Below are positions 3,520 through 17,866 of a stretch of DNA of 21,614 nt, in pieces. The notes under the pieces were generated by a model. That model was not told the origin of the DNA, ran no database searches, and worked only from the letters and a program-made list of their open reading frames with translations. Made by a program: the position numbers and the translations under genes. Position 1 is the stretch's first letter. Every line of letters begins with the position of its first letter. The DNA comes from a virus, in IMG/VR virus record IMGVR_UViG_3300042368_000874, positions 1 to 21,614 of that record. One strand, written 5' to 3'.

Positions 3520-4165
3520 TACTCTGCTGAAAACCTCTCTGTCAAAGCCGCCATGCGCTCAAAGGCATCCACCGTCTCGCCTGTCGGCGGGCCGGGCGGC
3601 ACTGTCCAAACGTCATTAGCCCGCAAGGCGCAATGCTGATATTGAAGCAGTCGGGCGAGCGGCAGTTCCCAAATGATGTAATGTTCGGGCCAGCCTGTCT
3701 CTCGCGCCAGCGTGAAAGCGAAAGTCGCAATCCACGCTGGCTCTGTCAGTTTCCCGGTGGCGAGGCTTGGGATGCGCCCGGTGCGGCGGGCTTTTCGACA
3801 ATCTCCACGGAGGCCGCGCCCGTCATGTCGCCGACGCGCTGAATCTCGTCCATGACTTGCGGCACGATCGAAAGCGGGATCTGCAACTGATAGCGAAGCA
3901 GTTCGTCCTCAAGGTGCTGCTTGTCGCGGACGGCGCGCAGCACTTTCTCGACGGGCTCGCAATGGATGAAAAGAAAGCCCGCCACTTGGCGTAGCTGCTC
4001 GACTTGATCCATCGGCTCGTCGGACTTCTCGCCCGTGAACTGCGACAGGCCGAGCTTTTTGCAGAGGGTAACGCTGCCAAGGGTAAAGGGCCGCAGCTTG
4101 AAATCGCCAATCTGCTTGAGCGAGGGTTCCAAAAACGCTTCTTCGGTTAGAGTAGTTTGAGCCAT
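3519..4165 (-). CDS. Tail assembly chaperone fusion (GT-like) made by -1 frameshifting
   Basis: The upstream 139-codon frame ends in CCG GGA AAC TGA. Slipping back one base on GGGAAAC (3749-3755) lets ribosomes continue as CTG ACA GAG and read 76 more residues (LTEPAWIATFAFTLARETG onward, ending ERFSAE) to TAA at 3519-3521, giving a 215-residue fusion. The extension has no plausible start of its own, is free of stops, and has protein-like content (Trp-rich, with LPLARLLQYQHCALRANDVW). Its stop overlaps the next ATG. This mirrors lambda G/GT, in which the fused product recruits tail tube protein to the tape measure during tail assembly and is absent from virions. The site is described in a separate entry. 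Confidence 0.85.
3540..3546 (-). promoter_or_regulatory. TTTGACA element before the gp10-like gene
   Basis: TTTGACA ends 20 nt before the ATG at 3519. It is inside the chaperone fusion frame (Leu-Thr codons). It is the widest spacing of the seven copies. Confidence 0.45.
3706..3755 (-). promoter_or_regulatory. -1 programmed ribosomal frameshift signal
   Basis: Read on the minus strand: heptamer GGGAAAC (3755-3749) in the zero frame as G GGA AAC, directly followed by the TGA stop. A 7-nt spacer TGACAGA comes next, then a perfect 9-bp stem GCCAGCGTG / CACGCTGGC (3741-3733 with 3714-3706). The 18-nt loop can form a further 4-bp stem (GCGA/TCGC). Heptamer type, spacer length and stem all match the canonical X XXY YYZ arrangement; lambda uses GGGAAAG. 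Confidence 0.88.
3746..4165 (-). CDS. Tail assembly chaperone (G-like, short product)
   Basis: A 139-residue acidic, helical protein, the unshifted product of the chaperone gene. It follows the usual layout of this class: a short beta N-terminus (FKLRPFTLGSVTLCKKLG, about 22-39), helices containing QLRQVAGFLFIHCEPVEKV, and a Pro/Ala-rich C-terminal linker leading into the slip site. The gene overlaps the preceding one by 19 nt. There is no clear Shine-Dalgarno sequence; a near match to the repeated upstream element (TTTGACT, 4183-4189) lies 17 nt before the ATG. Position before the tape measure and the frameshift signal at its 3' end make the assignment firm although sequence identity to known families cannot be checked here. 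Confidence 0.85.
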   Translation of the reverse strand: MAQTTLTEEAFLEPSLKQIGDFKLRPFTLGSVTLCKKLGLSQFTGEKSDEPMDQVEQLRQVAGFLFIHCEPVEKVLRAVRDKQHLEDELLRYQLQIPLSIVPQVMDEIQRVGDMTGAASVEIVEKPAAPGASQASPPGN

Positions 4166-4593
4166 TTTGCTTTCTCGTCGGGAGTCAAATCGGGGCGAAT
4201 CTTCAGCGTGCGTTGACCCTTGCGAAGCAGGATCATCGGGCGGTGCTTGCGGAAGTGATCGCGGAACTTGGAAAGGTTCTCGTGCGCGTGGCGTAGGTAG
4301 GCAATGGGGTGTTCCGGGTTAGCCTTGCACCACTTCAGATCGCGAAAGCGGACGAGAAATGCTTCCAGCGGCAGGCGCTCGTCGCCAAAGTTGGCGGTCA
4401 CGGTGTCATCGAAAACCCAAACGGTTTCTCGGATCAGTTCGCCTGTGCCTGTGTCCTCAACGTAGTCCTCAAAATTCTTGATTTGCTTGCCGTTAATGAG
4501 GCGGTAGCCAGCGGTCAAAGCGGCAACGCAAGACGCGCCTTCCAAGGAAGCGAGGGGCTGATCGTCCCTCGATTTGACCACTCGCACCTGCAT
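4147..4593 (-). CDS. Tail-region protein of unknown function
   Basis: A 148-residue protein encoded between the small beta-rich tail proteins and the tail chaperone. The N-terminal half looks beta-rich (VRVVKSRDDQPL; TGELIRETVWVFDDTVTANF). The C-terminal half is basic and helical (YLRHAHENLSKFRDHFRKH, then KIRPDLTPDEKAKWLKLL). ATG at 4593 is preceded by the neighbour's stop and by CCGCAAGG, which touches the start codon and is too close to act as a normal Shine-Dalgarno sequence. I do not recognise the family. The slot suggests a tail tube, terminator or assembly protein, but nothing in the sequence decides among them. Confidence 0.6.
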   Translation of the reverse strand: MQVRVVKSRDDQPLASLEGASCVAALTAGYRLINGKQIKNFEDYVEDTGTGELIRETVWVFDDTVTANFGDERLPLEAFLVRFRDLKWCKANPEHPIAYLRHAHENLSKFRDHFRKHRPMILLRKGQRTLKIRPDLTPDEKAKWLKLL

Positions 4594-4603
4594 CCTTGCG
4601 GGA

Positions 4604-4933
4604 TTAGCTCAAGGTCGCTCCGGGCCAGTTCCGCATGGTGAATGACCAATCGGGATAGTCTTCGTTGCGCTCGGTAATGGAAATGTTGGTGACAACGGAA
4701 GCGCCACCGCTGACGCCTGTGATTGTGGCTGTTTCACCAACGTCTAAACCGCTTGGGAAGTCGCCGCGTCCGCTGACCTGCACTTCAAAGGTCGGGTCAA
4801 AGGCTTTGCCTTGGCCGTAGGTGCCGTCTTTCTCGGCAATGTGTAGCTCTTCCAGGGTCTTGGTGATCTGAACGGATTGCGTCAGGTTATCGCTGTAAGC
4901 GGTGACGCCGATGTCTGCGACGGTGGAGGCCAT
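4604..4933 (-). CDS. Small beta-rich tail protein, paralogue of its upstream neighbour
   Basis: A 109-residue protein, Gly/Thr/Ser/Val-rich with predicted beta character throughout. Its C-terminal half (VSGRGDFPSGLDVGETATI, later ISITERNEDYPDWSFT) lines up by eye with the next gene upstream, which has RRGRGAGDLTGVTAGAI and SVSNTQTADDFPSYEIT. The two are likely diverged duplicates. Position before the tail chaperone suggests a tail tube or tube-associated role. The protein is shorter than typical tube subunits (lambda gpV has 246 residues). ATG at 4933 comes 6 nt after the preceding stop in an AT-rich spot (TAAAATATTATG) with no Shine-Dalgarno sequence. Confidence 0.65.
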   Translation of the reverse strand: MASTVADIGVTAYSDNLTQSVQITKTLEELHIAEKDGTYGQGKAFDPTFEVQVSGRGDFPSGLDVGETATITGVSGGASVVTNISITERNEDYPDWSFTMRNWPGATLS

Positions 4934-4939
4934 AATATT

Positions 4940-5251
4940 TTAGAGGTCGTCTTTGCGGACGGCAGTAATTTCGTAAGACGGGAAATCGTCCGCTGTTTGC
5001 GTGTTGGAAACAGAAATAATTTTGGCCGTGCCTTCGCTAATGGCCCCGGCGGTAACGCCTGTAAGATCGCCTGCCCCACGGCCACGGCGGGTAAAGTTGG
5101 TGGTGGAATAACCCAACTTGCTGACGTGCTTTGTCACGCCCGTTTTGTCGCGTATCGTGGCGACTTCAACCGTGCTGTCGGTCGTGAACTCCTCGGTCGT
5201 GGAGTTGGACGGCTCGGCAATGTCAGTGCTGGTAATTCCGATGGAAGGCAT
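4940..5251 (-). CDS. Small beta-rich tail protein, paralogue of its downstream neighbour
   Basis: A 103-residue protein rich in Thr and Ser (MPSIGITSTDIAEPSNSTTEE at the N-terminus), ending AVRKDDL. It has the same Gly-Arg-Gly ... Gly ... Asp-(Phe/Tyr)-Pro pattern as the 109-residue gene just downstream. The two genes are adjacent and similar in size, consistent with tandem duplication followed by divergence. It probably contributes to the tail tube or tail completion, judged by position. No enzyme motif or membrane segment is visible. ATG at 5251 lies 6 nt after the stop of the 33-codon gene; the leader has no clear Shine-Dalgarno sequence. Confidence 0.65.
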   Translation of the reverse strand: MPSIGITSTDIAEPSNSTTEEFTTDSTVEVATIRDKTGVTKHVSKLGYSTTNFTRRGRGAGDLTGVTAGAISEGTAKIISVSNTQTADDFPSYEITAVRKDDL

Positions 5252-5257
5252 GGCTGG

Positions 5258-5359
5258 TTATTTAGCGGACTTTTTGGCGAGACGGGCCTCGACGGCTGCA
5301 CCGCGAGGGCCAGTAACGGCGGCGGCTTTGGGCTGCTCTTTTGCTACGGGTTCGCTCAT
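5258..5359 (-). CDS. Small Ala/Lys-rich protein (33 residues), candidate
   Basis: A 33-codon frame from ATG at 5359 to TAA at 5258-5260, MSEPVAKEQPKAAAVTG through ARLAKKSAK. It fills the 124-nt space between two firm genes, leaving 16 and 6 nt. A TTTGACA element whose TGA is the stop of the preceding gene lies 14 nt before the start, the same arrangement as at five other structural genes. The composition is low-complexity and basic; no function can be proposed. The frame stays open far upstream inside the neighbour, but that extension is a shadow of the tail gene. Confidence 0.45.
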   Translation of the reverse strand: MSEPVAKEQPKAAAVTGPRGAAVEARLAKKSAK

Positions 5360-5373
5360 ACGCTTGCGTCGTG

Positions 5374-5380
5374 TGTCAAA
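5374..5380 (-). promoter_or_regulatory. TTTGACA element before the 33-residue gene
   Basis: TTTGACA, 14 nt before the ATG at 5359. Its TGA is the stop of the previous gene. CGCAAGCGT lies next to the start. Confidence 0.55.
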
Positions 5381-5789
5381 CGGCCACGCCAAGGGCCACT
5401 TGCAAAGTGTTGACCCATGCGCGGTCTTGAAAATCTGGCCCCGGCACGCTGGTGATGTAGCTGCCTGCAAAATCCACCCCTGACGCGGCGGCATCAAAGG
5501 CCGTGCGGAAGGAGCTTTGCGCCTCGATGGCGGTGACGAGCGTAGTGAAAAGACTGCTGTGGTCGGACAGGCTGACAGCCATTGACGGCGACCGCAGGCT
5601 AACGGTGAGATTGACCAAGAACGCGCCCGGCCCCCGGTGCTCGGCATCGCTGACCTCGACCACCACGGCCTGCTTCTCAAAGTCCAAGTCGGCGGCAGTG
5701 ACCGATTCGTGAACCTGTGTGCCTGCGGGAAGGTTGTTTAATGCGCGCAGGTAGGCCGCTACGCCCTTTTCTACTTCAAGCGGGTTCAC
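5376..5789 (-). CDS. Tail completion / tail terminator-like protein
   Basis: A 137-residue protein if translation starts at the GTG at 5789. That start overlaps the previous stop as GTGA and has GGAGG 10 nt upstream, the only clear Shine-Dalgarno sequence in the tail region. An ATG 24 nt further upstream (5813) has no well-spaced Shine-Dalgarno sequence. The protein opens with a helix (NPLEVEKGVAAYLRALNNL) and then beta strands (AVVVEVSDAEH; FLVNLTVSLRSP). It ends with helix and strand, ALGVAV. This size and helix-then-beta layout resemble tail terminator and minor tail U/Z-type proteins, which cap the tail or join it to the head. The assignment rests on layout and gene order. Confidence 0.65.
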   Translation of the reverse strand: MNPLEVEKGVAAYLRALNNLPAGTQVHESVTAADLDFEKQAVVVEVSDAEHRGPGAFLVNLTVSLRSPSMAVSLSDHSSLFTTLVTAIEAQSSFRTAFDAAASGVDFAGSYITSVPGPDFQDRAWVNTLQVALGVAV

Positions 5790-6121
5790 GGGTTGCCAAC
5801 CTCCACGATCCATTCCTGCGCGAGCGGGCTAAAGTTTTGCCGCACGGAGATGACGCGGTAGTTTTTGCCGTCAATCGTCACCGGGCTTTTCACTTCAGGC
5901 GCTTCGCACACATCGGTTTTGCTCACGCGCACCACGAAATCGACGGGTTGCTGATAGCCGCCCGACTCAAGGTTCAGTTCGGGCGTGCCTGTCGAGACGG
6001 CACAGGTGAAATTGCGGGGGGCTCCGTTCCACGCTTCGCCAAAGGTTACGGTCGTGCCGAAAGCGGATTTCATCTGCGCGGCAGCTTGACGGGCAAAGGC
6101 GGCTACGGAGGTGGCGTCCAT
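5786..6121 (-). CDS. Head-tail joining / head completion protein
   Basis: A 111-residue protein with a helical N-terminus (SVAAFARQAAAQMKSAFG) followed by beta strands (TVTFGEAW, VDFVVRVSKTD, KNYRVISVRQNF, EWIVEVGNP). Short proteins of this form between the capsid gene and the tail genes are typical head-tail connectors, similar in size to lambda gpFII (117 residues). ATG at 6121 lies 15 nt downstream of a TTTGACA element that also contains the stop of the glycosyltransferase gene. No family was identified from motif alone. Confidence 0.65.
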   Translation of the reverse strand: MDATSVAAFARQAAAQMKSAFGTTVTFGEAWNGAPRNFTCAVSTGTPELNLESGGYQQPVDFVVRVSKTDVCEAPEVKSPVTIDGKNYRVISVRQNFSPLAQEWIVEVGNP

Positions 6122-6136
6122 GTTTCAGAGGGCAAC

Positions 6137-6143
6137 TGTCAAA
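6137..6143 (-). promoter_or_regulatory. TTTGACA element before the head completion gene
   Basis: TTTGACA, 15 nt before the ATG at 6121. Its TGA is the stop of the glycosyltransferase. Confidence 0.55.
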
Positions 6144-7869
6144 GTTGATCGACCCACCCTTTTTCGATGGCGTCAGGGTTGCGGCGGCGAAAGACGGCCT
6201 TGCCGCGCTCGTTGGCCTCTGGGTTTTGCTGGCGCATATAAACCTCGTCCGAGGCCGCGCCCGTAAACGCGGGGTGATCGTGGAAAAATTTGATGTGGCG
6301 AGCGTCTTTGACTACCCCGTCCCGATAAGCCCGAAAGCTGAACTCCGTGTCGCTCCAGTAGCCGTCGAACTCTGGGCACAGCAACCACTCGCGGCCAAGC
6401 CACCAGCGCCAGTTGTAACACATGATGGTCATCAGCGGATCGGTCGGCCCACGGAATCCGTCCGAAACGTGCAGCACGGTGGGCGCGTCCATGTGCGGCT
6501 GCATAGCCTGGACAATCTGCTCGTCCCATCCGTGGGGCGGATAAACATCCGACTGCGCCATGATGAAGATCCGCGCACCCGATGCCGTAGCTGCGCGGGC
6601 GGCGGCGTTGTAGTTCGCCACGGCGCTACTGTGGCCCTCTGGAACAGCGGGCGCTAATCCGTGCGGGTAATGCTTCAACTGCTCGACAATCTCTTCGTCC
6701 GACTCGCAGATGCCGAAATAGTAGGCCACGCGCTCCGGGTGCGCGGCACGGCTTAACCACAAATCACGCACTTCAATGTCCTTGGCTCCCCTGCCCGCTG
6801 GATGCCCCACGGCAATGCGGGGCTTTAGCCTCTTAAGCCATTCTTTGCGGAGGCGCTCCGCTTCCTTGGTGTGGCCTGCTTTGGCGAGGGCCAGCGTCTT
6901 TAGGTCATGCGCCCGCCACCCGTAGAGCGAAGCATCATGCGTCCAGCTTGGTTCGTCTGGCATGGGCTGCGCTTCCATCGCGTTCGCGTAGGCCAGCGCC
7001 TTGTCGGCCTTGCCGCGAGCCAGATGCAGTTTCGCAAGCTCGGCGTATCCTTCCCGGCGCTGCGGCATGAGGCGAACAGCTTCCAGTAAAGGGCGCTCGG
7101 CCTCGTCCACATCCTTGAGCCAGCGGCCTATGGTTTGGTAGGCAACGAACTTTTCCTCGTTGCCCAGATCGTCGCGCCCGGTAGCGATGAGCGCGGCGTG
7201 CATCGCGGTCGGAATGTCCTGCTGAATCTCGCACTCTCTAAACAAAAACCACCATTCCCGCCCCGTGCGTTCTTCGGGCGGTATGCTCTCCAAGATATTG
7301 CGGTTCCGGGTGACGCTGCCGCGCTTGTTGTTTTCGGGCATATGCATGACTTGCATTTCCGAGCACCATGAGTTTTCCGTGCCTTCGTGCGTCTCGATGT
7401 CCTCGTGGACGGCATTGATCCAGCGTTTGTAGGCACTGGCTTTGACCAACCGAACGCGGCGGGCGTAGCTGCCGTTGGCGTTGGTGATGTAGGGCGAGAA
7501 AATAGCGCCCCCTTCCATCGGATGCCCCTCGCGTATCATCCGCAGGACTTCCGCGCCCGTAGGGGTCAGCAAATCGTCGCAATCGGCCCACATGAGCCAA
7601 TCCGTGCCTTCGGGCGCGAGGGCAAAGGTCTGGTTGCGGGCGGCGGCAAAGTTATCGACGTGGGGCCAATCCTTGCCAGCCTCGCCGTTGTGGTATTCGC
7701 CCACGATGCAGCCACGGGCTTTGGCGATGTCCAGCGTGGCGTCGGGCGGCTGGTTGCCACAGGCGCGGACTACGGAAACAGAATCAACGTGCGGCTGAAA
7801 GCTGTTGAGAAAGCGGGTGATGTTTTCCGCTTCGTTGCCGCAAATGATGCCGAGATGAATTTTCGCCAC
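6139..7869 (-). CDS. Two-domain glycosyltransferase with TPR-like middle
   Basis: A 576-residue protein starting with GTG. Residues 1 to about 200 form a GT2-type GT-A domain: MAKIHLGIICGNEAENITRF opening, DxD motif in WADCDDL (about 95-100), and the acceptor-side WINAVHE (150-156). Residues about 210-345 look like helical TPR repeats (EGYAELAKLHLARGKADKAL). Residues about 375-576 form a second GT-A-like unit, with IFIMAQSDVYPPHGW and YWSDTEFSFRAYRDG. Such enzymes transfer a sugar from a nucleotide donor, in the host cytoplasm. Lying between the capsid and connector genes, it may glycosylate virion proteins or host surface glycans; that is inference. It follows a strong terminator-like hairpin, so it may be expressed less than the capsid gene. 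Confidence 0.82.
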   Translation of the reverse strand: MAKIHLGIICGNEAENITRFLNSFQPHVDSVSVVRACGNQPPDATLDIAKARGCIVGEYHNGEAGKDWPHVDNFAAARNQTFALAPEGTDWLMWADCDDLLTPTGAEVLRMIREGHPMEGGAIFSPYITNANGSYARRVRLVKASAYKRWINAVHEDIETHEGTENSWCSEMQVMHMPENNKRGSVTRNRNILESIPPEERTGREWWFLFRECEIQQDIPTAMHAALIATGRDDLGNEEKFVAYQTIGRWLKDVDEAERPLLEAVRLMPQRREGYAELAKLHLARGKADKALAYANAMEAQPMPDEPSWTHDASLYGWRAHDLKTLALAKAGHTKEAERLRKEWLKRLKPRIAVGHPAGRGAKDIEVRDLWLSRAAHPERVAYYFGICESDEEIVEQLKHYPHGLAPAVPEGHSSAVANYNAAARAATASGARIFIMAQSDVYPPHGWDEQIVQAMQPHMDAPTVLHVSDGFRGPTDPLMTIMCYNWRWWLGREWLLCPEFDGYWSDTEFSFRAYRDGVVKDARHIKFFHDHPAFTGAASDEVYMRQQNPEANERGKAVFRRRNPDAIEKGWVDQL

Positions 7870-7876
7870 TGACTAC

Positions 7877-7912
7877 AAAAAGGAAGGGCCACGGCGAGTG
7901 GAACCGTGACCC
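7877..7912 (-). terminator. Rho-independent terminator-like hairpin after the capsid gene
   Basis: In the minus-strand transcript, GGGUCACGG (7912-7904) pairs with CCGUGGCCC (7894-7886) around a 9-nt loop: nine pairs including one G-U. The stem is followed by TTCC and then a run of five T (7881-7877). It lies between the capsid gene and the GTG start of the glycosyltransferase, so it could reduce read-through into the neck and tail genes. Confidence 0.7.
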
Positions 7913-7934
7913 CTGCTCGTAAGAGCAAATGAAA

Positions 7935-7964
7935 CTCCCGCCGCGTCCACTCACACGGCGGGAG
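7935..7964 (-). terminator. GC-rich hairpin directly downstream of the capsid gene
   Basis: A perfect 9-bp stem, CTCCCGCCG / CGGCGGGAG, around a 12-nt loop, 14 nt after the capsid stop codon. In the transcript it is followed by UUUCAUUU, a weak U-rich tail. A smaller 5-bp hairpin (7914-7927) sits between it and the next terminator-like stem. It may be a terminator or a 3' end that stabilises capsid mRNA. Confidence 0.6.
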
Positions 7965-7978
7965 ATGAACACACAGGA

Positions 7979-8830
7979 TTAGATGACCAGCGCCATCGTG
8001 TTGCTGGTGAGGCCGGGGGCCGCGCCGAACATAAGCTCGATGGAAGCGTTGACCTGACGGTTGTTGGTCGAACCCCACACGTTCCAGTAGACCGAGAGGC
8101 CCAACTGATCGAGGGTGACAACTTGGTCGCTGATCTGGAACTGCGAGGAAACCGCAGGGTCGATCATCGGCTTGGCCGAGGCAACGCACACCGCTTCGCG
8201 TGAGCAGGCGAAGCCGTCGAGGCCCGTGACCGCACCGCTGAAGCTGTTCGCGTAGTAGATGCCCTGATCGAAACCATAAGCACCGTTTTGGAGCGGCAGG
8301 AAGTCGGCGTTGGTCGGGATGAGCGCCGAGTAGATCGACGGAGTAACGACCAAGCCCTTGCTGGTGGATTTGCTGATCGCGCTCCACAGCGAGGCCAGAT
8401 GGCCGCTGCCCGGAGTGATCGTGGTCGTGGTGACAGTCGCCGCGCCGAAGTTGACCGTGGTCACGGGCGTAATGGCGATGCTCCAGAGCTTGTCGGCCAG
8501 AGCGTCCACGTTGATCTTGATGAGGTTCTCAAGGCGATGGCCGAGGGCGAGGTCGCTCTGGCTGATGCCGAAGAACTGAGCCACATGATCCAAGGTGACG
8601 GTGGCTTTGCCAACGGTCACATCGGAACCGGGTTCAAAATTGGTCGGGTTAACAGCGGTGGCGCTGGTTGCCGAAACGATGGGCACCTGAATGGTGTCCT
8701 TTGCTTTCTTAACTTCATTGCTGAAGTCAGTGGTGAAAAGGCGCAGAGGAGCGAGGCGGTTAGCCAAGACTGTCTGAACCTGTTGCGAGATGGTGGCGAC
8801 CACCAGCCCGGAATCGAATACGTTAGCCAT
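7979..8830 (-). CDS. Major capsid protein
   Basis: A 283-residue protein directly after the protease/scaffold gene. It has the feel of HK97-fold coat proteins of the P22-like type: an N-terminal helix (ISQQVQTVLANRLAPLRL), a strand region (DTIQVPIVS), then FEPGSDVTVGKATVTLDHVAQFFGIS with a long helix LENLIKINVDALADKLWSIA, a Thr-rich segment, and a C-terminal beta region. The neighbours (portal, protease, scaffold upstream; connectors downstream) place it firmly. There is no N-terminal delta-domain; scaffold function is supplied by the upstream gene. The leader is A/C-rich with no Shine-Dalgarno sequence (separate entry), and hairpins close the transcript. Confidence 0.85.
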   Translation of the reverse strand: MANVFDSGLVVATISQQVQTVLANRLAPLRLFTTDFSNEVKKAKDTIQVPIVSATSATAVNPTNFEPGSDVTVGKATVTLDHVAQFFGISQSDLALGHRLENLIKINVDALADKLWSIAITPVTTVNFGAATVTTTTITPGSGHLASLWSAISKSTSKGLVVTPSIYSALIPTNADFLPLQNGAYGFDQGIYYANSFSGAVTGLDGFACSREAVCVASAKPMIDPAVSSQFQISDQVVTLDQLGLSVYWNVWGSTNNRQVNASIELMFGAAPGLTSNTMALVI

Positions 8831-8874
8831 ATCTTTGGTTGATTAGGTTGGGTTTGTTGGTTGTTGGGTTTTCC
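8831..8874 (-). promoter_or_regulatory. A/C-rich leader of the capsid gene without a Shine-Dalgarno sequence
   Basis: The 44 nt between the protease stop and the capsid ATG read almost entirely as A and C on the coding strand, with CAAC/AACC repeats (for example CCCAACAACCAACAAACCC). I count only three G and three T. It has no purine-rich ribosome-binding site and can hardly fold, so it would be an open, unstructured landing zone for ribosomes on what should be the most translated gene. Confidence 0.6.
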
Positions 8875-9327
8875 TTAGCTGGTGGCTTTGGAAAGTGAGG
8901 CGCGAGCGGCCCAGATGGCTTTCTTGTGCTCGGCGTAAAGTTTGTTACTGACCGCGAAGTCCTTGGCCTCAACTGCGGCCATCCACTGCGCCACGGGGTC
9001 GGACTCTTCGGACTTGGCAACCGGGGCGACTGTTGCGGCGGAAACGCCTGCGGACTTCTCCAGCGCGGCGAAAGCGTCTTTGACTTTGGAAAGCTCGGCC
9101 TCGGCAGCTTCGGCGCGGGCGATGGCTTCGGCCTTCTCGGCTTCCAGCGCGGCGAGCTTTTCGGCGGAATCGTCGGCCTTGGCTTCGGGCGCAGCCTCTT
9201 CGGCGGCGGGATCTTCGGTGATTTCGGGCGCAACGGCCTCGACGGTGACGGGCGCTTCCTCAACGGCGACTTCGACCGCAGGCGCGGCGACTTCGGTTTC
9301 GGTGGCGACGGAGTTGGATTCGTCCAT
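8875..9327 (-). CDS. Nested scaffold protein from an internal in-frame start (candidate)
   Basis: An ATG at codon 199 of the protease gene (MDESNSVATETEVAAPAVEV) would yield a 150-residue protein made only of the scaffold domain. It is preceded, with a 14-nt spacer, by TTTGACA and GCAAGGCGC, the same arrangement as at true gene starts in this region. Lambda Nu3 is made in the same way from inside gene C. The position exactly at the domain boundary and the upstream motif are the support; expression is inferred. Confidence 0.55.
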   Translation of the reverse strand: MDESNSVATETEVAAPAVEVAVEEAPVTVEAVAPEITEDPAAEEAAPEAKADDSAEKLAALEAEKAEAIARAEAAEAELSKVKDAFAALEKSAGVSAATVAPVAKSEESDPVAQWMAAVEAKDFAVSNKLYAEHKKAIWAARASLSKATS

Positions 9328-9921
9328 GCGCCTTGCAAAAGTGTCAAACCTGTGGCGCAAATCCTTGGCGCTGGCGGCGGCAGGAATGCCGTCCTCGATG
9401 GCGTCCACAAAGCCGAGCGCGGTGGCTTCCAGCGCCGTCAGCCATGTCTCTTCGTCCATGAGTCGGCTGATCTCTTCGGCGGGCATCCCGCTCTTGCGCT
9501 GATACCCGCGCACCAGCGTGGACTTCATGGTGTCGAGCAAGTCGGCTTGCTTGCGGAGATCGTCAGCCTCGCCAGCGGCGAGCGTCCACGGGTTGTGGAT
9601 CATGAGCAGCGCGTTTTCGCTCATGTAAGTCGGCTTGCCCGACATGGCGATGTAGCTCGCCATCGAAGCCGCGAGGCCGTCGATGTGGACAGTGACGCCG
9701 CCTTCGTGGCGGTTTAGCGCGTTGGCGATGGCACTTCCGTCAATGATCTCTCCACCGGGGGAGTTGATGCGGACATGAACGTGCTGGCCTTTGTATTCGC
9801 GCAGTTCTGCGATGAACTCTTTTGCGCCGATGCCGAACGCACCGATTTCGTCGTAGATAGAAAGCTCAACCTCGCCGCTCTTGTCGGAAGAGTTTTTAAA
9901 CGCATACCACTTCTGGGTCAT
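8875..9921 (-). CDS. Head maturation protease (ClpP-type) fused to scaffold
   Basis: A 348-residue protein. Residues 1 to about 180 are a ClpP/S14-type serine protease: HVRINSPGGEIIDG (49-62), catalytic Ser86 in GLAASMASY, catalytic His109 in LLMIHNPW, and the family's ETWLTALEATALGFVD (158-173). Residues about 199-348 are a low-complexity Ala/Glu/Val domain ending in a coiled coil (EKLAALEAEKAEAIARAEAA) and a basic tail, as in phage scaffolds. Established role for such fusions: the scaffold directs procapsid assembly, then the protease digests it and trims the capsid protein. ATG at 9921 follows a TTTGACA element by 13 nt. The GAGGG before it is only 4 nt away. Confidence 0.9.
   Translation of the reverse strand: MTQKWYAFKNSSDKSGEVELSIYDEIGAFGIGAKEFIAELREYKGQHVHVRINSPGGEIIDGSAIANALNRHEGGVTVHIDGLAASMASYIAMSGKPTYMSENALLMIHNPWTLAAGEADDLRKQADLLDTMKSTLVRGYQRKSGMPAEEISRLMDEETWLTALEATALGFVDAIEDGIPAAASAKDLRHRFDTFARRMDESNSVATETEVAAPAVEVAVEEAPVTVEAVAPEITEDPAAEEAAPEAKADDSAEKLAALEAEKAEAIARAEAAEAELSKVKDAFAALEKSAGVSAATVAPVAKSEESDPVAQWMAAVEAKDFAVSNKLYAEHKKAIWAARASLSKATS
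9342..9348 (-). promoter_or_regulatory. TTTGACA element before the internal scaffold start
   Basis: TTTGACA, 14 nt before the in-frame ATG at 9327 within the protease gene; GCAAGGCGC precedes the ATG. Confidence 0.55.
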
Positions 9922-9934
9922 GCACCCTCGCGGG

Positions 9935-9941
9935 TGTCAAA
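9935..9941 (-). promoter_or_regulatory. TTTGACA element before the protease gene
   Basis: TTTGACA, 13 nt before the ATG at 9921. Its TGA is the portal stop codon. Confidence 0.55.
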
Positions 9942-11451
9942 CGTCGGCAGGCGGCACTTCTACTTGCGAGGGTTGTTCGGCATATTCCTCTGTCTCGTTG
10001 TGAACCATCGGCGTTGGTGATCCCGGCGCGGGCGGGAATACGTCCGTGACGCTCAACCCTGCGGCCTCGCACTTTTCCTTGCGGCGAACAGCGGCAGCAA
10101 TCGCCGCATCTTCTTCGGCCTCTTCGTCCAGCCCGTGCATCTCGGCAAAGCGGCGGGTGGACATTGCGCCTGTGCGGACAATCTCCAAGAGCGCCTTGGT
10201 GTCGCGGCCAAAGTCCACCGTGGCGCGGGCTGGCGGAATGAAATCCACTCTCCACCAATCGTCACGCAGCGGCAGACGCCCCGCTTGGATCTCCGACCAG
10301 ACCCAATACTTCCAGAAGCGGCGGCAAAACTGATTGATGAGCCATTCCTGCAATTCGGAGAAAAAGACCTGTGCATCGGCCAGCACATAGCGGGTATTGG
10401 CCCCGCCGATCCCGGCCACCGACCACAGCATTTCGGGCGATACGCCGATGCCCCAAGAGATATCGCGGGCAAGGAAGTCGAGGAACGCTTGGAAGTTGCT
10501 GCCGGGGTGCTCGTTCTTGAACTGCTGCAACTTGCTTCCGGGCGGCAACTGCACCACGCCCGATTGCGAGTAGAGCTTGTCGAGCGTCACACTTCCCGTG
10601 GAGGCATCCTGCTTTTTGAGCGCGGCCCCCATGCCGATCTGCATGGCATCGGGCGACTCGATGATGAATGCGGGCTGGCTTGCCAGCTTGAACGTCTGCT
10701 TGGTGAAGCTGACGATATCGGCCATGTCGTGCAGATGCAGGGCAGCGCGAGCCAGCCATGACGGACTGCGTGTGTAGCCAATGCGGACGGGGCGGCGGAA
10801 GTGCAGGATGTCATCGGCAGAGACATCGGTGAAACGCTGCGCGTCGGCGCTGCCAAGGATGCGGTATTGAGTCGGCCTGCCGTAGCGATCCGTCCGCACG
10901 CCGTCTTGCCATTCGTCCTGCGCCAGCGGGGTTGAGGCATTGCCCACTTGCTCGGCCCCCATAAACCGAACCAGAGCGCGCCCGCTCTCGCTTTTGATGA
11001 ACTGCCCGAAAAAGTCGCCGTCGATAGCAACGTGGCGGATGATGAAGCTCTGCGCTTCGTAGAAATTGACCTGACCGCCCGCGTCGAAACCAAACGCTTC
11101 GCGGCCTACCGAATCCTCAAAAAGTTCTTCCGCCTGTTTGTTCCACGCATCGTCCGAGGTGCGAGCGGCGGGGATGATGCCCGTGCCGCAGACATAGCGC
11201 GCCACGCCATCCACGGCGCGGGCGGCAAGGCCCACGTTGTTGTAGAGCCAGCGCGCCTTCCGCATGATGTTGACCCGCGTGCCGTTGGTAAGCTCGTTGC
11301 GCGGCTCCACCGTGGGCATATAGATGAACGTCCTGCCCGGCTGATAAAGTTCGCCCGCCTCATAGGCTGCATTTTTGGCATCGGGCTTGCGCGGCCTGCC
11401 TGCTCCGGGGCGCGCTCCGCCGCGCTTTGATTTCGTTTGAATTTCCGCCAC
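9937..11451 (-). CDS. Portal protein (lambda gpB-like)
   Basis: A 504-residue protein beginning at GTG 11451, with a Lys/Arg/Gly-rich N-terminal tail (SKRGGARPGAGRPRKPDAK). It continues with portal-type segments: RKARWLYNNVGLAARAVDGVARYVCGTGI-like helices (given here as positions about 64-92), HVAIDGDFFGQFI, ILHFRRPVRIGYTRSPSWLA, then the crown/stem region with QWLINQF-like helices. This pattern matches the lambda-family portal (Phage_portal_2), which forms the dodecameric DNA entry ring and docks the terminase and the gpW-like protein. It sits between the gpW-like gene and the protease, as in lambda. A TTTGACA element lies 13 nt before the start; no clear Shine-Dalgarno sequence. Confidence 0.9.
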   Translation of the reverse strand: MAEIQTKSKRGGARPGAGRPRKPDAKNAAYEAGELYQPGRTFIYMPTVEPRNELTNGTRVNIMRKARWLYNNVGLAARAVDGVARYVCGTGIIPAARTSDDAWNKQAEELFEDSVGREAFGFDAGGQVNFYEAQSFIIRHVAIDGDFFGQFIKSESGRALVRFMGAEQVGNASTPLAQDEWQDGVRTDRYGRPTQYRILGSADAQRFTDVSADDILHFRRPVRIGYTRSPSWLARAALHLHDMADIVSFTKQTFKLASQPAFIIESPDAMQIGMGAALKKQDASTGSVTLDKLYSQSGVVQLPPGSKLQQFKNEHPGSNFQAFLDFLARDISWGIGVSPEMLWSVAGIGGANTRYVLADAQVFFSELQEWLINQFCRRFWKYWVWSEIQAGRLPLRDDWWRVDFIPPARATVDFGRDTKALLEIVRTGAMSTRRFAEMHGLDEEAEEDAAIAAAVRRKEKCEAAGLSVTDVFPPAPGSPTPMVHNETEEYAEQPSQVEVPPADV

Positions 11452-11464
11452 GCCTGCGGCGGTC

Positions 11465-11471
11465 TGTCAAA
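11465..11471 (-). promoter_or_regulatory. TTTGACA element before the portal gene
   Basis: TTTGACA, 13 nt before the GTG at 11451, directly after the stop codon of the gpW-like gene; CGCAGGC touches the start. Confidence 0.55.
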
Positions 11472-11765
11472 TCACAGGCGCACGGGCGCTTCCGACCAAT
11501 CGGCGTAAACCATGCCCGCGCTGCGGACTTTCGTGGGCTCGGCAGACGGGGCGAGATCTTCGATCAAGTCTTCGACCAGATTCAGAATGTCGGCCTTGCT
11601 GTAACGCTTGGCCTGGCCGCTCGTGCTGCCACCCTCAAAGCCCGTCGAGGTGATGACCACTTCGCTTTCTGCCGAGGCAAACAGCGCGGTTGCCATCGTC
11701 TGCAATTCGGAAAGCGTCTTGGTGCGCTTCAAGAATTTGCGGATGCCAGCAAGCTCGGAGGTCAT
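11472..11765 (-). CDS. Head-tail joining protein, gpW-like
   Basis: A 97-residue protein between terminase and portal genes, the place of lambda W (68 residues). It starts with a helix (SELAGIRKFLKRTKTLSELQTM), has a short beta section (SEVVITSTGFEGG), and then a helix introduced by RYSKADILNLVEDLIEDL, similar in layout to gpW, in which a beta hairpin lies between two helices. gpW-type proteins fill the portal channel after packaging and prepare tail joining. ATG overlaps the terminase stop as ATGA, and a TTTGACA element lies 14 nt upstream, inside the terminase gene. The extra length at the C-terminus is unexplained. Confidence 0.7.
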   Translation of the reverse strand: MTSELAGIRKFLKRTKTLSELQTMATALFASAESEVVITSTGFEGGSTSGQAKRYSKADILNLVEDLIEDLAPSAEPTKVRSAGMVYADWSEAPVRL

Positions 11766-13483
11766 GCTTGGGCGTCGGCTGTCAAAGGTTGTGGTTGCGC
11801 CTCAAAGTGCTGCCGCATGACCCACCACGTCACCAAATGCAGCTTCGTGCAATCGCCGTAGTGGTCGCCCGCCACCTTCTTCCAGACTCGGCCTTTGGTC
11901 TTCTCGCTCTCGATGATCTTCTGCCCCATGTGCCCAAGCAAAAAGTCTTCACCCGTGTCGGACGGGAAATGCAAAAGCGGCGGCGATTTTTTGGCGATGC
12001 GCTCGATGTAAAGCGCCACCTTGGCCGAAAAGTCCACATAGCGGTAAAGCACCAGCGTCGGGTAATCCTTCAAGTGCGACGCGTCCCATGTGCCTGCCTG
12101 TGCCGCCGATCCCTTGGACGGAAAGAACACGCCACCCGAACGGGCGCACGTTGCATAGACGCGCTCGGTGAAGTCGCCCGAATCGACCAGCCCGCATTGG
12201 ATGCGGATTGGTTCTTCGCGTCCCTCGACGCGCCATTCCATGCGCGCCACGAGCGGGATCAAGTCCTCGATGGCAAAAGTTGTGCCGTAGTCGATCACAT
12301 AAGACTCGCCGCCTTCCGTCCACGCTTGCACGCTCCAGTGCGTTTGCATTTGTCCGGGGTCAGCACAAAGCGTGACCAGCGCGGGCTCGACGGGCATCTG
12401 GCCGCGCTTGTAAGTCGCATCACGCATCGCCACCACAGCATCGTCGCTAACGTGCGCCGTGCGGTCTTCCCATCGCTGCGCCATGCGCTTTTGCAGGAAT
12501 TGCTTGCGCGGCTCGCGGTCGCCGCGCTGCCAAGCCTCTTCGGCCCTGACCCACTCGGACGCCAACTTTGACCACGGCACCCACCACACCGTGAGCGCGT
12601 TGTAGTTGAACGCCAACCGCCCGGTCATGCCGTCAGCCACTTGGATGTATTGCCCCGTGGCGCAAAGTTGTCGGCGTTGCTCCGCGTTGTCTTCAAAGCG
12701 CGCATCGCACCCGGCGCAGACCATGTGCGTGGTGGCCGCGAGTCTGTCCCAATCCATTGACCCGTCCTTTTTGCGTTCCCGCTCAAAGCGCACCATCTCA
12801 AAGCGCCACGGTTGGCGACGTTGGCAATGCGGACACTCCCATTGCCATTGCCATTGCTCGCAAAGGTCTTGGGCCGCGTGGAAATCGTCGCCTTCTTCGC
12901 CGCCCTGGCTGACCAGCACCACCCGGCTATTCCATCGGTCGTGCGTGCGGCGGCGGAACTCCTCGACCATGCCGTGCTTCCAGCGCCACACCTCGTCACC
13001 GATACACCAGCGGATCGACTTTTCTTGGAGGTTGCTGATGTTAGCCCCGCCGATGAAGAGCGGCATATGGGGGAAAAGGATCTCGGTCTTTCGTTTTGCG
13101 TGGCGGTCTTTGGGGAATAGCCGCGCCACGGGTTCGGTGGCGTTGAAGACGGGAGCCAACCGCGTCTCGGCCCACTCTTTAGATAGCTCGTCCGTCTGCC
13201 CCGCAAAGAGGGACGGCCCCGGCGCTTGCGATACCACCCACGCCAGAAGGCACTCAAAGAGCGTGGTCTTGCCCGATCCGACCGGGGCGCAAATCACCAC
13301 CTCGTCATTGGTGTCTTTGGCGATCTCTTCCAGCGGCGCGTTTAGCCAAGGCGCGGTATCCCTGCGGAAGCGCGGGTTGCGCGCCGAGTGCGGAAGCTCC
13401 ACGTTGGCCTCAATCCAGTCAATGATGCCAAACTGCCTTTCGGGCGCGATCCGCTCTTGGAATATCTCATCGCTAATAATCAT
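11762..13483 (-). CDS. Terminase large subunit (GpA family)
   Basis: A 573-residue packaging motor. The N-terminal ATPase has Walker A APVGSGKTT (66-74), Walker B ending GDE (162-164) and coupling motif VLVSQGG (about 189-195). Two CxxC pairs, CPHC (217-220) and CAGC (256-259), may form a zinc-binding insert. The C-terminal RNase H-like nuclease shows acidic residues in LCADPG (Asp375), LVDSGD (Asp434) and GDHYGD (about 539-544). Layout matches the GpA branch (lambda gpA, 641 residues), which cuts concatemers and drives DNA into the procapsid through the portal. ATG overlaps the small subunit stop as ATGA. A hexanucleotide repeat encodes QWQWQW just before CPHC. Confidence 0.95.
   Translation of the reverse strand: MIISDEIFQERIAPERQFGIIDWIEANVELPHSARNPRFRRDTAPWLNAPLEEIAKDTNDEVVICAPVGSGKTTLFECLLAWVVSQAPGPSLFAGQTDELSKEWAETRLAPVFNATEPVARLFPKDRHAKRKTEILFPHMPLFIGGANISNLQEKSIRWCIGDEVWRWKHGMVEEFRRRTHDRWNSRVVLVSQGGEEGDDFHAAQDLCEQWQWQWECPHCQRRQPWRFEMVRFERERKKDGSMDWDRLAATTHMVCAGCDARFEDNAEQRRQLCATGQYIQVADGMTGRLAFNYNALTVWWVPWSKLASEWVRAEEAWQRGDREPRKQFLQKRMAQRWEDRTAHVSDDAVVAMRDATYKRGQMPVEPALVTLCADPGQMQTHWSVQAWTEGGESYVIDYGTTFAIEDLIPLVARMEWRVEGREEPIRIQCGLVDSGDFTERVYATCARSGGVFFPSKGSAAQAGTWDASHLKDYPTLVLYRYVDFSAKVALYIERIAKKSPPLLHFPSDTGEDFLLGHMGQKIIESEKTKGRVWKKVAGDHYGDCTKLHLVTWWVMRQHFEAQPQPLTADAQA
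11780..11786 (-). promoter_or_regulatory. TTTGACA element before the gpW-like gene
   Basis: TTTGACA, 14 nt before the ATG at 11765, within the last codons of the terminase large subunit; CCCAAGC touches the start. Confidence 0.55.
12839..12856 (-). repeat. Hexanucleotide tandem repeat in terminase
   Basis: Three copies of CAATGG on the coding strand, encoding alternating Gln and Trp just before the CPHC zinc pair. Confidence 0.7.
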
Positions 13484-13866: not shown

Positions 13867-13942
13867 AAATCATGTGTAAATGACGCCCAAACCCCATTGG
13901 TTTGCGCTCCACGGAAGCCTTCTTACCGGGGGGGTGGGTCAT
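13832..13942 (-). CDS. Possible 36-residue leader peptide before terminase
   Basis: A small frame, MTHPPGKKASVERKPMGFG through KKCPRG, whose ATG overlaps the upstream stop as ATGA and has GGGGA about 9 nt upstream. It ends inside the terminase small subunit gene (35-nt overlap). It covers most of an otherwise empty 72-nt gap, and the next gene lacks a ribosome-binding site, so coupling is possible. The early codons include a run of seven C. It is short and unrecognised and could be chance. Confidence 0.3.
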   Translation of the reverse strand: MTHPPGKKASVERKPMGFGRHLHMIYEQTAKKCPRG

Positions 13943-14547
13943 GAGCCCAATTCCCCATAAAACTCCACGATCTCCCGCAGCGTCTCGCGGATGTCTTCCC
14001 TGTCTTGATCGTCCCACTTCTTCCAAGCCTCCCCAAGCTCTCGACGCCATGCGCGAAACTCCCTTTGCACAGCGTAAGGAGAAGGCAGGGAAACCGTGCG
14101 CTTGTCCATGTCGATGCGGATCACCTCATGCGCCCGAATGCTGGCCTGCAATTCCCTTGGGCTCAGTCCCTCGATGCTCGCGGTAGTCAGCCACACTTGC
14201 CTGTCCTTGTCGCTGTCGCACCGCTTGCTTGCCACAAGGTAATGCTCTTGGGTGAGGTTCTCGTGCCGATGCTCTGGCGATACCTCGGCAATCAGTTGGA
14301 GGTTCTCTTTGAATTTAAGATCAAACTCCATCTGCTCCAATGTCGCAGAAACAAACCCCGCCTCGTAGTTCGTGCGGCCATAGCGCAGCCAATCCGCATT
14401 CCACACCGTCAATGATTCCTGTGCGGTCTTTAGCCATTGGCCGAAATTGGCCCACTCTTCGCCGCTCATGCCTTCGGGCAAGATCAGCGATGTCTTCGTT
14501 GCGATGATCCCTTGCGGGACTTTGTATTGTGTCAGTTGTGTTCCCAT
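13939..14547 (-). CDS. Unknown protein between replication and packaging modules
   Basis: A 202-residue protein if it starts at MGTQLTQYK (ATG 14547, 8 nt after the previous stop). A longer frame upstream overlaps the neighbour and looks like shadow. It has Trp-rich helices (EEWANFGQWLKTAQESLTVW, about 29-48, with NADWLRYGRTNYEAG) and then HENLTQEHYLVAS and IEGLSPRELQASIRAHEVI. The latter resembles the short helical segment seen in several ParB/KorB-like and related DNA-binding proteins. The C-terminus is acidic and helical (DREDIRETLREIVEFYGELG). A regulatory or DNA-binding role is possible but I do not recognise the family. Confidence 0.6.
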   Translation of the reverse strand: MGTQLTQYKVPQGIIATKTSLILPEGMSGEEWANFGQWLKTAQESLTVWNADWLRYGRTNYEAGFVSATLEQMEFDLKFKENLQLIAEVSPEHRHENLTQEHYLVASKRCDSDKDRQVWLTTASIEGLSPRELQASIRAHEVIRIDMDKRTVSLPSPYAVQREFRAWRRELGEAWKKWDDQDREDIRETLREIVEFYGELGS

Positions 14548-14555
14548 AGATTTGT

Positions 14556-15218
14556 TTAGGCCGCTGCTTCCTTCTTCTTTTTGACGTAAGCCACCCGCGC
14601 CTCGCGGTATTTCACCCTGGCCTCTTCCGTCTTCGCGTAGGTCAGATCGTAAAGCCCAAGCTCCTTTTGCCATTCCTTCTGCCAATAGCTCATCAGAGCC
14701 CGCGTGACTCCGAGTTCGGTGGCCTTACTGTGCGGATTGTGCTGGGTCAGATGCCGAGCCACGCCTGACTGAAACGCCAGCGCCCAAAAGACCACCTTGG
14801 AATCTGCCGTCTTCTCGCCAAGGAACCGCCCCAATATCGCCCCCAGCACCTTGGCCTGCATCGAGCGGGCCGCGTCATGCTCCCGCTTGCGCGCCCAAGT
14901 CAGCACTCCGAGCGCCTGCCCCTCATGCAGCCCGAACCGCTCCATCAAATCCTCGTGGTCTTGGTCGATGGCCCCGGCCATGTCTGGCACTTCGCTTGCC
15001 TCGTTCCATTCCGCCGCGTCCTTTTCCTGCCCGGTGTGGTGCGCTTCACTTGCCAGCTTGGGCATTGCTTCAACCAGCCTCCGCTCCTTTTCGGGCAATG
15101 TCTTGGCCCAGTCGGCAATAAGCTGATCCTGTCGCTTTTCTGCCGATAACTGCGGAGGACAAACCCCTGTTGGCTGCATCCCCCACCATGTTTTGTCAAT
15201 TTGCGCTCGTTTTTTCAT
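14556..15218 (-). CDS. Unknown helical protein with a possible helix-turn-helix
   Basis: A 220-residue, mostly helical and charged protein. ATG at 15218 overlaps the previous stop as ATGA, with AAGG about 12 nt upstream. An acidic centre (DMAGAIDQDHEDLMERFGLH) is followed by helices (DAARSMQAKVLGAILGRFLG). A segment HSKATELGVTRALMSYWQKE (about 171-190) has the spacing of a helix-turn-helix: a first helix ending at ELGV, then a second ALMSYW helix. The C-terminus is Lys-rich (AYVKKKKEAAA). By place it might be a regulator of late genes or a packaging accessory protein; this is inference, and the family is not recognised. Confidence 0.6.
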   Translation of the reverse strand: MKKRAQIDKTWWGMQPTGVCPPQLSAEKRQDQLIADWAKTLPEKERRLVEAMPKLASEAHHTGQEKDAAEWNEASEVPDMAGAIDQDHEDLMERFGLHEGQALGVLTWARKREHDAARSMQAKVLGAILGRFLGEKTADSKVVFWALAFQSGVARHLTQHNPHSKATELGVTRALMSYWQKEWQKELGLYDLTYAKTEEARVKYREARVAYVKKKKEAAA

Positions 15219-16977: not shown

Positions 16978-17866
16978 CGAAAAACTCCACTCGTTGAATT
17001 GTCCCATTCTCCCGCTGCCCGTTCGGCATCCGCACGAACTGCGACTTCAGCCAAGTCTTCGGATCGCCGCCCAGGCGGACGGCCTCCTCCATAAATTTCC
17101 GGTCACTGGCCTCATCGGTCGCCCGATACCAGCCATGCAGCGACTTGCTGCCGCTGAAGACCACCATCCGCAGATCGCGGAACTCTGAGAGCCAGATATG
17201 CCGCGCCGCCTGCTCGTCAGGCGTGGCACCGTCATCAAACTCCACCACGATGTTCTGTCGCGGCCCGGTGTTGTCCAAAGTGTGCGCGGAAAGCTCGCCG
17301 TCACTCTTGCGCTTGCCCTCGAGGGCCGACATCGCATTCGGCACGACGAACTCCCACATCCGCAACTGCCCGGCAAAAGCCGACATCGCCGCCGTCTCGA
17401 ACTTCGCCACCCCGAGCCCCACGCAGGCAAGCACCTCGCTGCCACCCAGCAATGAGCCAAGGAACCACTCAGGCGCGGTCTTCTCCATCTCCGCAGCATC
17501 CAGCGCCGACGCCTCCCGCAACTTCTCCAGCGACCACTCCCGCCGCTTAGAAAGCCGGCGGCACTCCGCCTGCAAAGTCTTATTCGGCACCGGCCACGGC
17601 CTCACCCGGGCGGTGCCCGTGCTCGGCGTCACTTCATACGCATATTGAATGGCGGACAGGATCTCGCGGTCAGGCGTGAACCGCCCGCCATTGTCCTCGC
17701 GCACCGCATCCACCATCCGCCGGATGATGTGATAGGCGCGGGCGTGGCCGATCCCGTCATCGCGCAGCATACAGGCCCAGGCATAAATCTGCCCGTGCAA
17801 GCTGGACGCCTGCCGCTTGCGCTTGTTGGGCGAACGGCACCAGGCGAGGAATTTGCTGTCGGTCAT
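16970..17866 (-). CDS. Primase-like protein (AEP motifs in the C-terminal part)
   Basis: A 298-residue protein starting at ATG 17866, which overlaps the methyltransferase stop (ATGA) and has a strong GGAGGGGGAGG upstream. The C-terminal third carries an archaeo-eukaryotic primase-like signature: VVEFDD (207-212) as the acidic metal-binding motif, SGSKSLHGW (238-246) with His244, and FVRMPNGQREN (277-287). The N-terminal 200 residues are helical, with a Lys/Arg-rich start, and were not recognised. Such proteins make primers for replication and are often encoded next to a RepA helicase, as here. Whether it is catalytically complete cannot be told. Confidence 0.7.
   Translation of the reverse strand: MTDSKFLAWCRSPNKRKRQASSLHGQIYAWACMLRDDGIGHARAYHIIRRMVDAVREDNGGRFTPDREILSAIQYAYEVTPSTGTARVRPWPVPNKTLQAECRRLSKRREWSLEKLREASALDAAEMEKTAPEWFLGSLLGGSEVLACVGLGVAKFETAAMSAFAGQLRMWEFVVPNAMSALEGKRKSDGELSAHTLDNTGPRQNIVVEFDDGATPDEQAARHIWLSEFRDLRMVVFSGSKSLHGWYRATDEASDRKFMEEAVRLGGDPKTWLKSQFVRMPNGQRENGTIQRVEFFDA

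What the first reader, a model, noticed from the sequence alone, without database searches (positions are those of the whole stretch)
3540..11786. A 7-mer, TTTGACA, marks gene starts in the structural module
By eye I find seven exact copies on the coding strand (3540, 5374, 6137, 9342, 9935, 11465, 11780) and none on the other strand. About 1.3 per strand would be expected by chance in random sequence. All seven precede a start codon: six with spacers of 13-15 nt, one with 20 nt. Three supply the upstream stop codon. Several are also followed by a GCAAGGC-like stretch touching the start. A near copy (TTTGACT) precedes the tail chaperone. These starts mostly lack a Shine-Dalgarno sequence. It may be a non-canonical ribosome-recruitment signal or an RNA operator for a phage or host regulator of late translation.
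Basis: partly seen in the sequence, partly recalled or inferred. Interest (0 to 1): 0.78.

Follow-up and report, generated by a model that had tools for sequence, protein, structure and literature searches.

The report
Phage late-gene start signal: TTGACA plus hairpin
A family of viruses that infect Verrucomicrobiota bacteria puts the same six-letter signal, often followed by a small RNA hairpin around the start codon, just ahead of many virion genes, which suggests a previously undescribed way of controlling where protein synthesis starts.

Summary
All seven TTTGACA copies sit where stated on the minus strand, 13-20 nt before start codons. An eighth gene, 15179, has ATTGACA. In ten non-redundant relatives, a scan that ignored the motif ranked TTTGACA first of 16,077 7-mers near starts (Bonferroni 1e-30). 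The core is a strict TTGACA: 141 of 234 copies lie 13-17 nt before a start, against 11 expected. It recurs in prophages of Verrucomicrobiota genomes. It is absent from sampled host genes, from terminase relatives in other phyla, from Akkermansia-type relatives, and from most unrelated Verrucomicrobiota phages.

At these sites the spacer is complementary to the first ~20 nt of its own gene (z about -10; within protein families about -7; control starts about 0), so many sites can fold a hairpin around the start codon. About 30% of sites stand out individually.

I read it as an RNA element governing late-gene translation in a Shine-Dalgarno-poor phylum. A phage-dependent factor at UUGACA opening the start is my preferred but unproven mechanism. 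16S pairing, boxA, promoter and phage S21/S1 explanations were tested and not supported. Nearest known kind: start-associated sequences of cluster K mycobacteriophages.

The parts
15194..15200 (-). ATTGACA, eighth site, 14 nt before ATG 15179 of the helix-turn-helix-like gene c15 (14556-15179)
   Evidence: homologous sites in G001, G002, G004
11780..11786 (-). TTTGACA, 14 nt before ATG 11765 (97-aa gene between terminase and portal)
   Evidence: conserved in relatives
11465..11471 (-). TTTGACA, 13 nt before GTG 11451 of the portal gene
11445..11462 (-). Predicted start-codon hairpin of the portal gene, stem CCGCCGC/GTGGCGG, loop AGGC, GTG start in the 3' arm
   Evidence: different stems at the same place in other phages
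9935..9941 (-). TTTGACA, 13 nt before ATG 9921 of the head maturation protease gene; supplies the portal stop codon
9924..9935 (-). Predicted hairpin ACCC-GCGA-GGGT between motif and protease start
9342..9348 (-). TTTGACA inside the protease ORF, 14 nt before in-frame nested ATG 9327 (probable scaffold start, 150 aa)
   Evidence: conserved nested site in relatives
6137..6143 (-). TTTGACA, 15 nt before ATG 6121 of the head-closure-like gene (PHROG 82); supplies an upstream stop
5374..5380 (-). TTTGACA, 14 nt before ATG 5359 of a short gene; supplies an upstream stop
4183..4189 (-).
   Evidence: TTGACT is the one variant clearly enriched
3540..3546 (-). TTTGACA, 20 nt before ATG 3519 (261-aa gene)
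   Evidence: 17 nt in G002 and G004
13939..14547 (-). Gene c4, candidate regulator that co-occurs with the motif; no motif of its own in this window
14556..15179 (-). Gene c15, helix-turn-helix-like candidate regulator; carries the motif itself

Best explanation
A cis-acting RNA element of late-gene translation. UUGACA lies 13-17 nt upstream of the start codon, about where the upstream edge of a 30S subunit would lie, and is often followed by a short hairpin that holds the start codon in or beside its loop. Shown here: the element, its spacing, its strictness, its tie to gene starts, its hairpin tendency with covariation, and its restriction to one lineage of phages and prophages of Verrucomicrobiota. 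Inferred: in these Shine-Dalgarno-poor hosts the element replaces a ribosome-binding site; a phage-encoded or phage-induced factor binds UUGACA, brings the 30S subunit to the start or opens the hairpin, and so licenses translation of virion genes, including a scaffold nested in the protease gene. The factor is not identified; the neighbouring genes c15 and c4 are the only candidates found by co-occurrence, and both look more like DNA-binding than RNA-binding proteins.
For: Position and strictness: TTTGACA is the top 7-mer near starts in a motif-blind scan; TTGACA 141/234 at 13-17 nt against 11.2 expected, with single substitutions at background; spacing counts jump at 13 nt and decay by 18 nt. 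It tracks translation starts rather than operons: a nested in-frame start in the protease ORF carries it in all close relatives and in G149 and G352, and the opposite-strand copies in G001, G002 and G004 precede an opposite-strand gene at 13-14 nt. RNA structure: spacer plus own CDS folds better than with permuted CDSs (z -9.3), control starts z about 0; within-family swaps z -7.4, i.e. covariation; sequence upstream of the motif does not pair with the CDS. Phage-specific: no peak in host genes, in relatives from other phyla or in Akkermansia-type relatives. Host starts are Shine-Dalgarno-poor and motif starts even more so.
Against: No binding factor identified; no phage S21 or S1 domain on the available contigs. 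The hairpin is a tendency, not a rule: 30% of sites beat 90% of swapped CDSs, and with one site per family z is only -1.6 to -4.5; window sites 6121 and 5359 hardly fold. Several highly expressed virion genes, including major capsid and terminase, lack the motif. Activation rather than repression is a judgement, not a result. No expression data exist for these phages here.
Confidence: 0.5

Rival explanations
1. Translational repressor operator: a phage RNA-binding protein binds UUGACA plus the start hairpin and blocks initiation, for timing or autogenous control, in the manner of T4 RegA or an RNA-phage coat protein.
For: The hairpin tends to enclose the start codon, which would by itself hinder initiation. 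The first gene of the late cluster (c15) and, in prophages, c4 and the small terminase subunit carry the motif, as expected of autogenous control. Many targets share one operator, as with T4 RegA (PMC3014915).
Against: It would repress virion genes that must be made in bulk. Motif starts have no other visible ribosome-binding site. RegA-like operators overlap or adjoin the AUG and are unstructured, whereas this hexamer ends at least 13 nt upstream.
Confidence: 0.22
2. DNA-level element: TTGACA is a late promoter or activator site giving very short 5' leaders, read by a phage sigma factor or by the c4/c15 DNA-binding-like proteins.
For: TTGACA is the sigma-70 -35 hexamer. c15 and c4, which co-occur with the motif, resemble helix-turn-helix and ParB/Noc DNA-binding domains.
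Against: There is no -10-like element downstream (TA...T at 14-20 nt: 3.8% vs 2.8% in random windows) and no conserved base within 40 nt upstream except position -1. A -35 element here would start transcription inside the gene. Tight spacing to the start codon and covariation between spacer and coding sequence are not expected of a promoter.
Confidence: 0.13
3. Base pairing with ribosomal RNA or use of a host antitermination element: 16S helix 17 (as proposed for the T7 gene 10 enhancer) or NusB-S10 at boxA.
For: Some Verrucomicrobiota 16S have TGTCAAA in helix 17. Ribosomal boxA in this phylum is often GNTCTTTGACA, whose 3' half equals TTTGACA.
Against: Hosts whose prophages carry the motif have TGTCAC or TGTCAT in helix 17, and motif-less hosts have TGTCAT, so the invariant first T's would not pair. 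The phage motif lacks the TCT of boxA and does not tolerate TTGAAA, which ribosomal boxA does. Sampled host genes do not use it.
Confidence: 0.06
4. Chance plus common descent: a few copies inherited together with no function.
For: The phages are related, so sites are not all independent.
Against: The hexamer is invariant while flanks and spacers diverge. It precedes at least 38 protein families and persists between phages whose terminases are 31-45% identical.
Confidence: 0.01

Closest known systems
Start-Associated Sequences (SAS/ESAS) of cluster K mycobacteriophages (Pope et al. 2011, PMC3203893)
   Same: Short asymmetric repeat, one orientation, tied to start codons of many unrelated phage genes, sometimes containing the upstream stop codon, absent from the host genome; mechanism unknown, translation suspected
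   Different: SAS is 13 bp, contains AGGAG complementary to 16S, lies 3-7 bp from the start, is in non-structural genes, and the inverted repeats of ESAS were judged not to be RNA hairpins. Here: a 6-nt core without Shine-Dalgarno content, 13-17 nt from the start, in structural genes, followed by a covarying start-codon hairpin
T4 RegA operators (PMC3014915)
   Same: One phage factor acting at translation starts of many phage mRNAs
   Different: RegA sites are A+U-rich, loosely conserved, unstructured, at or immediately 5' of the AUG, and repress; no RegA-like protein was found or specifically searched for here
RNA-phage coat operator hairpin (own knowledge)
   Same: Hairpin holding or adjoining a start codon
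   Different: Single gene with conserved loop and stem; here the hairpin sequence is free and only the flanking hexamer is fixed
Phage-encoded bS21 late translation (PMC9723584)
   Same: Proposed preferential late translation of phage structural genes in freshwater, Shine-Dalgarno-poor hosts
   Different: No bS21 on the available phage contigs; that work describes no sequence motif
boxA / nut sites of ribosomal and lambdoid antitermination (own knowledge; boxA sequences)
   Same: TTTGACA resembles the 3' half of Verrucomicrobiota boxA, and a hairpin follows
   Different: 5' half of boxA absent, TTGAAA not tolerated, tied to start codons instead of leaders

Membership tests
Start-associated sequence (SAS), cluster K type | Repeated asymmetric sequence near start codons of many phage genes, mainly one orientation | tested here: met
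Start-associated sequence (SAS), cluster K type | Contains a Shine-Dalgarno core (AGGAG) 3-7 bp from the start | tested here: not met
   TTGACA 13-17 nt from the start; Shine-Dalgarno 4-mers at 6% of motif starts
Start-associated sequence (SAS), cluster K type | Restricted to non-structural genes | tested here: not met
   Mostly virion genes
Shine-Dalgarno site | Complementary to 16S 3' end ACCUCCUUU | tested here: not met
   16S tail is canonical GGATCACCTCCTTTCT; TTGACA does not match it
16S helix 17 enhancer (T7 gene 10 type) | Complementary to host 16S around E. coli 458-466 | tested here: not met
   TGTCAC/TGTCAT in G102, G182, G149
Sigma-70 promoter | -10 element about 17 nt downstream of TTGACA | tested here: not met
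Sigma-70 promoter | Transcription start downstream of the element | not testable with these tools
   No RNA data
boxA (NusB-S10 site) | Full GNTCTTTGA consensus | tested here: not met
   No conservation 5' of TTGACA beyond position -1; TTGAAA at background
Phage translational operator (RegA or coat-protein kind) | A phage protein binds the RNA and changes translation | not testable with these tools
   Needs binding and reporter assays
Phage translational operator (RegA or coat-protein kind) | Element at the initiation region with conserved RNA structure | tested here: met
   Start-codon hairpin tendency with covariation; individual sites vary
bS21/S1-directed late translation | Phage encodes bS21 or an S1 domain | tested here: not met
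   contigs may be incomplete
Known RNA family (Rfam 15) | Match to a curated family | tested here: not met
   No match in the window

The most novel reading that the evidence does not exclude
A new type of bacterial translation-initiation signal: a strict UUGACA about 13-17 nt before the start plus a start-codon hairpin, read by a phage-dependent factor, that gives late phage mRNAs privileged or timed access to ribosomes in a bacterial phylum that hardly uses Shine-Dalgarno sites.
Probability: 0.45. Interest if true: 0.86.

Novelty: new variant of a known kind. Interest (0 to 1): 0.74.

Why it matters
How ribosomes find starts in bacteria that hardly use Shine-Dalgarno sites is an open question. 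Here is a sharply defined cis signal, present in many divergent phages, with tight spacing and a testable hairpin, that separates phage late genes from host genes. It would let one look for the phage factor that reads it, improve start annotation in these phages (nested scaffold, short genes, c15 start), and could offer an orthogonal translation signal for Verrucomicrobiota.

Tried and rejected
1) Host-wide signal: samples of about 100-200 kb from each of five host genomes show no peak. 2) 16S pairing: no TGTCAAA in most 16S; the helix 17 idea failed on motif hosts. 3) boxA identity. 4) Promoter or upstream partner element. 5) Phage S21 or S1 domain. 6) Fixed-column covariation at spacing 13 was weak because stems sit in different registers; replaced by own-versus-swapped folding. 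7) Stop-codon or coupling model: the TGA in the motif is the upstream stop in 30 of 118 cases, with frames about random, so the motif is not primarily a stop signal. 8) The first genome-collection scan with the terminase profile found nothing; the phylum-restricted search did. 9) No paper was found for this motif in phages (open-access library only).
Full report
WHAT WAS CLAIMED. Seven TTTGACA copies mark gene starts in a phage structural module, perhaps as a ribosome-recruitment signal or RNA operator.

CHECK IN THE WINDOW. All seven are exactly where stated, all on the minus strand that encodes the genes, none on the other strand; 0 of 100 dinucleotide shuffles reach seven. Each is 13-20 nt before a start codon of an ORF. 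The module is identified by PHROG matches to terminase, portal, protease, head closure, tape measure and glycosyltransferase. One site precedes an in-frame ATG (9327) nested in the protease ORF, the usual place of a scaffold start in lambda-like phages (own knowledge). The window is a complete 21.6-kb virus record, classed as linear and possibly a fragment, with no tRNA or Rfam element.

RELATIVES. A terminase search gave viral contigs at 85-100%, about 45-53% and about 30% identity. Nearly all contigs above 40% identity, and L016 and L024 at 31%, carry TTTGACA one to seven times on the coding strand and almost never on the other, again mostly 13-20 nt before starts of corresponding genes, while the spacer sequence has diverged. 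A scan blind to the motif over ten non-redundant records ranks TTTGACA first of 16,077 7-mers near starts: 31 of 65 copies, 2% expected, Bonferroni 1e-30.

HOST AND SPREAD. The closest isolated phage is Akkermansia phage Moulinsart at 29%. A profile search of 388 Verrucomicrobiota genomes found terminase relatives in 37. Prophages in many of these show TTTGACA or GTTGACA at the same distance before most structural genes. Pooled, TTGACA has 73 of 120 copies at 13-17 nt in these prophages (5.6 expected) and 57 of 91 in the viral contigs (4.3 expected); samples of host chromosomes show no peak. Terminase relatives in Planctomycetota and Hydrogenedentes stretches and in Synechococcus, Roseburia and Paracoccus phages lack it, as do Moulinsart and Akkermansia-type prophages. 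Most of 20 Verrucomicrobiota phage regions with a Terminase_3-type terminase lack it; a few (L257, L263, L250) show weak signals. So the signal belongs to a phage lineage, not to the phylum at large. That the window's own host is a Verrucomicrobiota member is an inference.

SHAPE OF THE SIGNAL. The core is TTGACA with T (63%) or G (27%) before it. Single substitutions fall to or near background except T (17 vs 5.2) and weakly G at base 6; TTGCCA is marginal. 141 of 234 TTGACA copies are at 13-17 nt (11.2 expected). The spacing begins abruptly at 13 nt. Nothing else is conserved within 40 nt upstream, and there is no -10 element. In G001, G002 and G004 a TTGACA on the opposite strand lies 13-14 nt before a GTG-started gene on that strand (cluster 9, which looks like a metallophosphoesterase; not confirmed by a family search), so the signal follows the gene, not the strand. 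An eighth site in the window (15194-15200) precedes c15, a gene upstream of the terminase, with homologous sites in three relatives.

HAIRPIN. At 132 non-redundant sites the spacer folds with the start of its own gene better than with the starts of other genes: -7.71 vs -5.98 kcal/mol, z -9.3. Swapping only among homologous genes keeps the effect (-8.10 vs -6.67, z -7.4), as compensatory change would; portal genes form several different stems at the same place. Controls are flat or weak: 643 starts without the motif (z about 0), sequence upstream of the motif (z -0.8) and CDS shifted by 30 nt (z -2.6). Caveats: one site per family gives z -1.6 to -4.5, and only 30% of sites beat 90% of swaps (10% expected). 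In the window the portal and protease starts fold well, and 6121 and 5359 hardly at all.

MECHANISM. A start-codon hairpin that covaries with coding sequence, a minimum spacing that fits the upstream edge of a 30S subunit (own knowledge), and use before a nested start all point to RNA and translation. Sampled hosts have Shine-Dalgarno 4-mers at background and motif starts even fewer (start calls are approximate), in line with published low Shine-Dalgarno use in parts of this phylum (PMC10783764). Pairing with 16S, boxA and phage S21 or S1 were tested and not supported. Two adjacent genes upstream of the terminase, c15 and c4, were found by profile in most motif phages where that region is held (c4 and c15 both missing near G102; G008 and G009 are truncated or lack them), and not in most motif-less relatives, hosts or outgroups, apart from a weak c15-like match in G135 and G137. 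Their co-occurrence may simply reflect descent. c4, modelled at mean pLDDT 80, resembles ParB/Noc DNA-binding domains only at E 0.3-1; a c15 homologue has a helix-turn-helix match. I therefore prefer a phage-dependent activator of initiation at UUGACA, with repression and a DNA-level role as live rivals.

COMPARISON. The nearest described kind is the start-associated sequences of cluster K mycobacteriophages, also of unknown mechanism (PMC3203893). Sequence, distance, gene class and hairpin differ, so this is not a member. I call it a new variant of the kind 'phage start-associated signal'.

Noticed in passing
window 13939-15179 (-): Gene pair c15 and c4 upstream of the terminase, found by profile in most motif phages; c4 model weakly resembles ParB/Noc DNA-binding domains.
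   Followed up: partly
window 8875-9327 (-): Probable scaffold start nested in frame inside the head maturation protease ORF, with its own motif, conserved in relatives.
   Followed up: partly
window 6139-7869 (-): Glycosyltransferase-like gene inserted between capsid and head-closure genes; homologues at the same place in G001, G002, G004 and G010.
   Followed up: no
window 17863-19431 (-): DNA methyltransferase-like ORF (PHROG 67) in the early region, which has no motif.
   Followed up: no
L063, L138, L148, L153 (rRNA spacers): The ribosomal boxA of several Verrucomicrobiota reads GNTCTTTGACA, whose 3' half equals the phage motif.
   Followed up: partly
L148 and L134, 16S helix 17: Some Verrucomicrobiota 16S carry TGTCAA(A) in helix 17, complementary to the motif; motif hosts examined do not.
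   Followed up: yes
motif phages, 13-17 nt before starts: CCAGCA (60 vs 25 expected) and TTGCCA (36 vs 21) are mildly over-represented at the same distance; unexplained.
   Followed up: no
L257, L263, L250 (Terminase_3-type phages): Weak TTGAC/TTGACA peaks before starts in a few otherwise unrelated Verrucomicrobiota phage regions.
   Followed up: no
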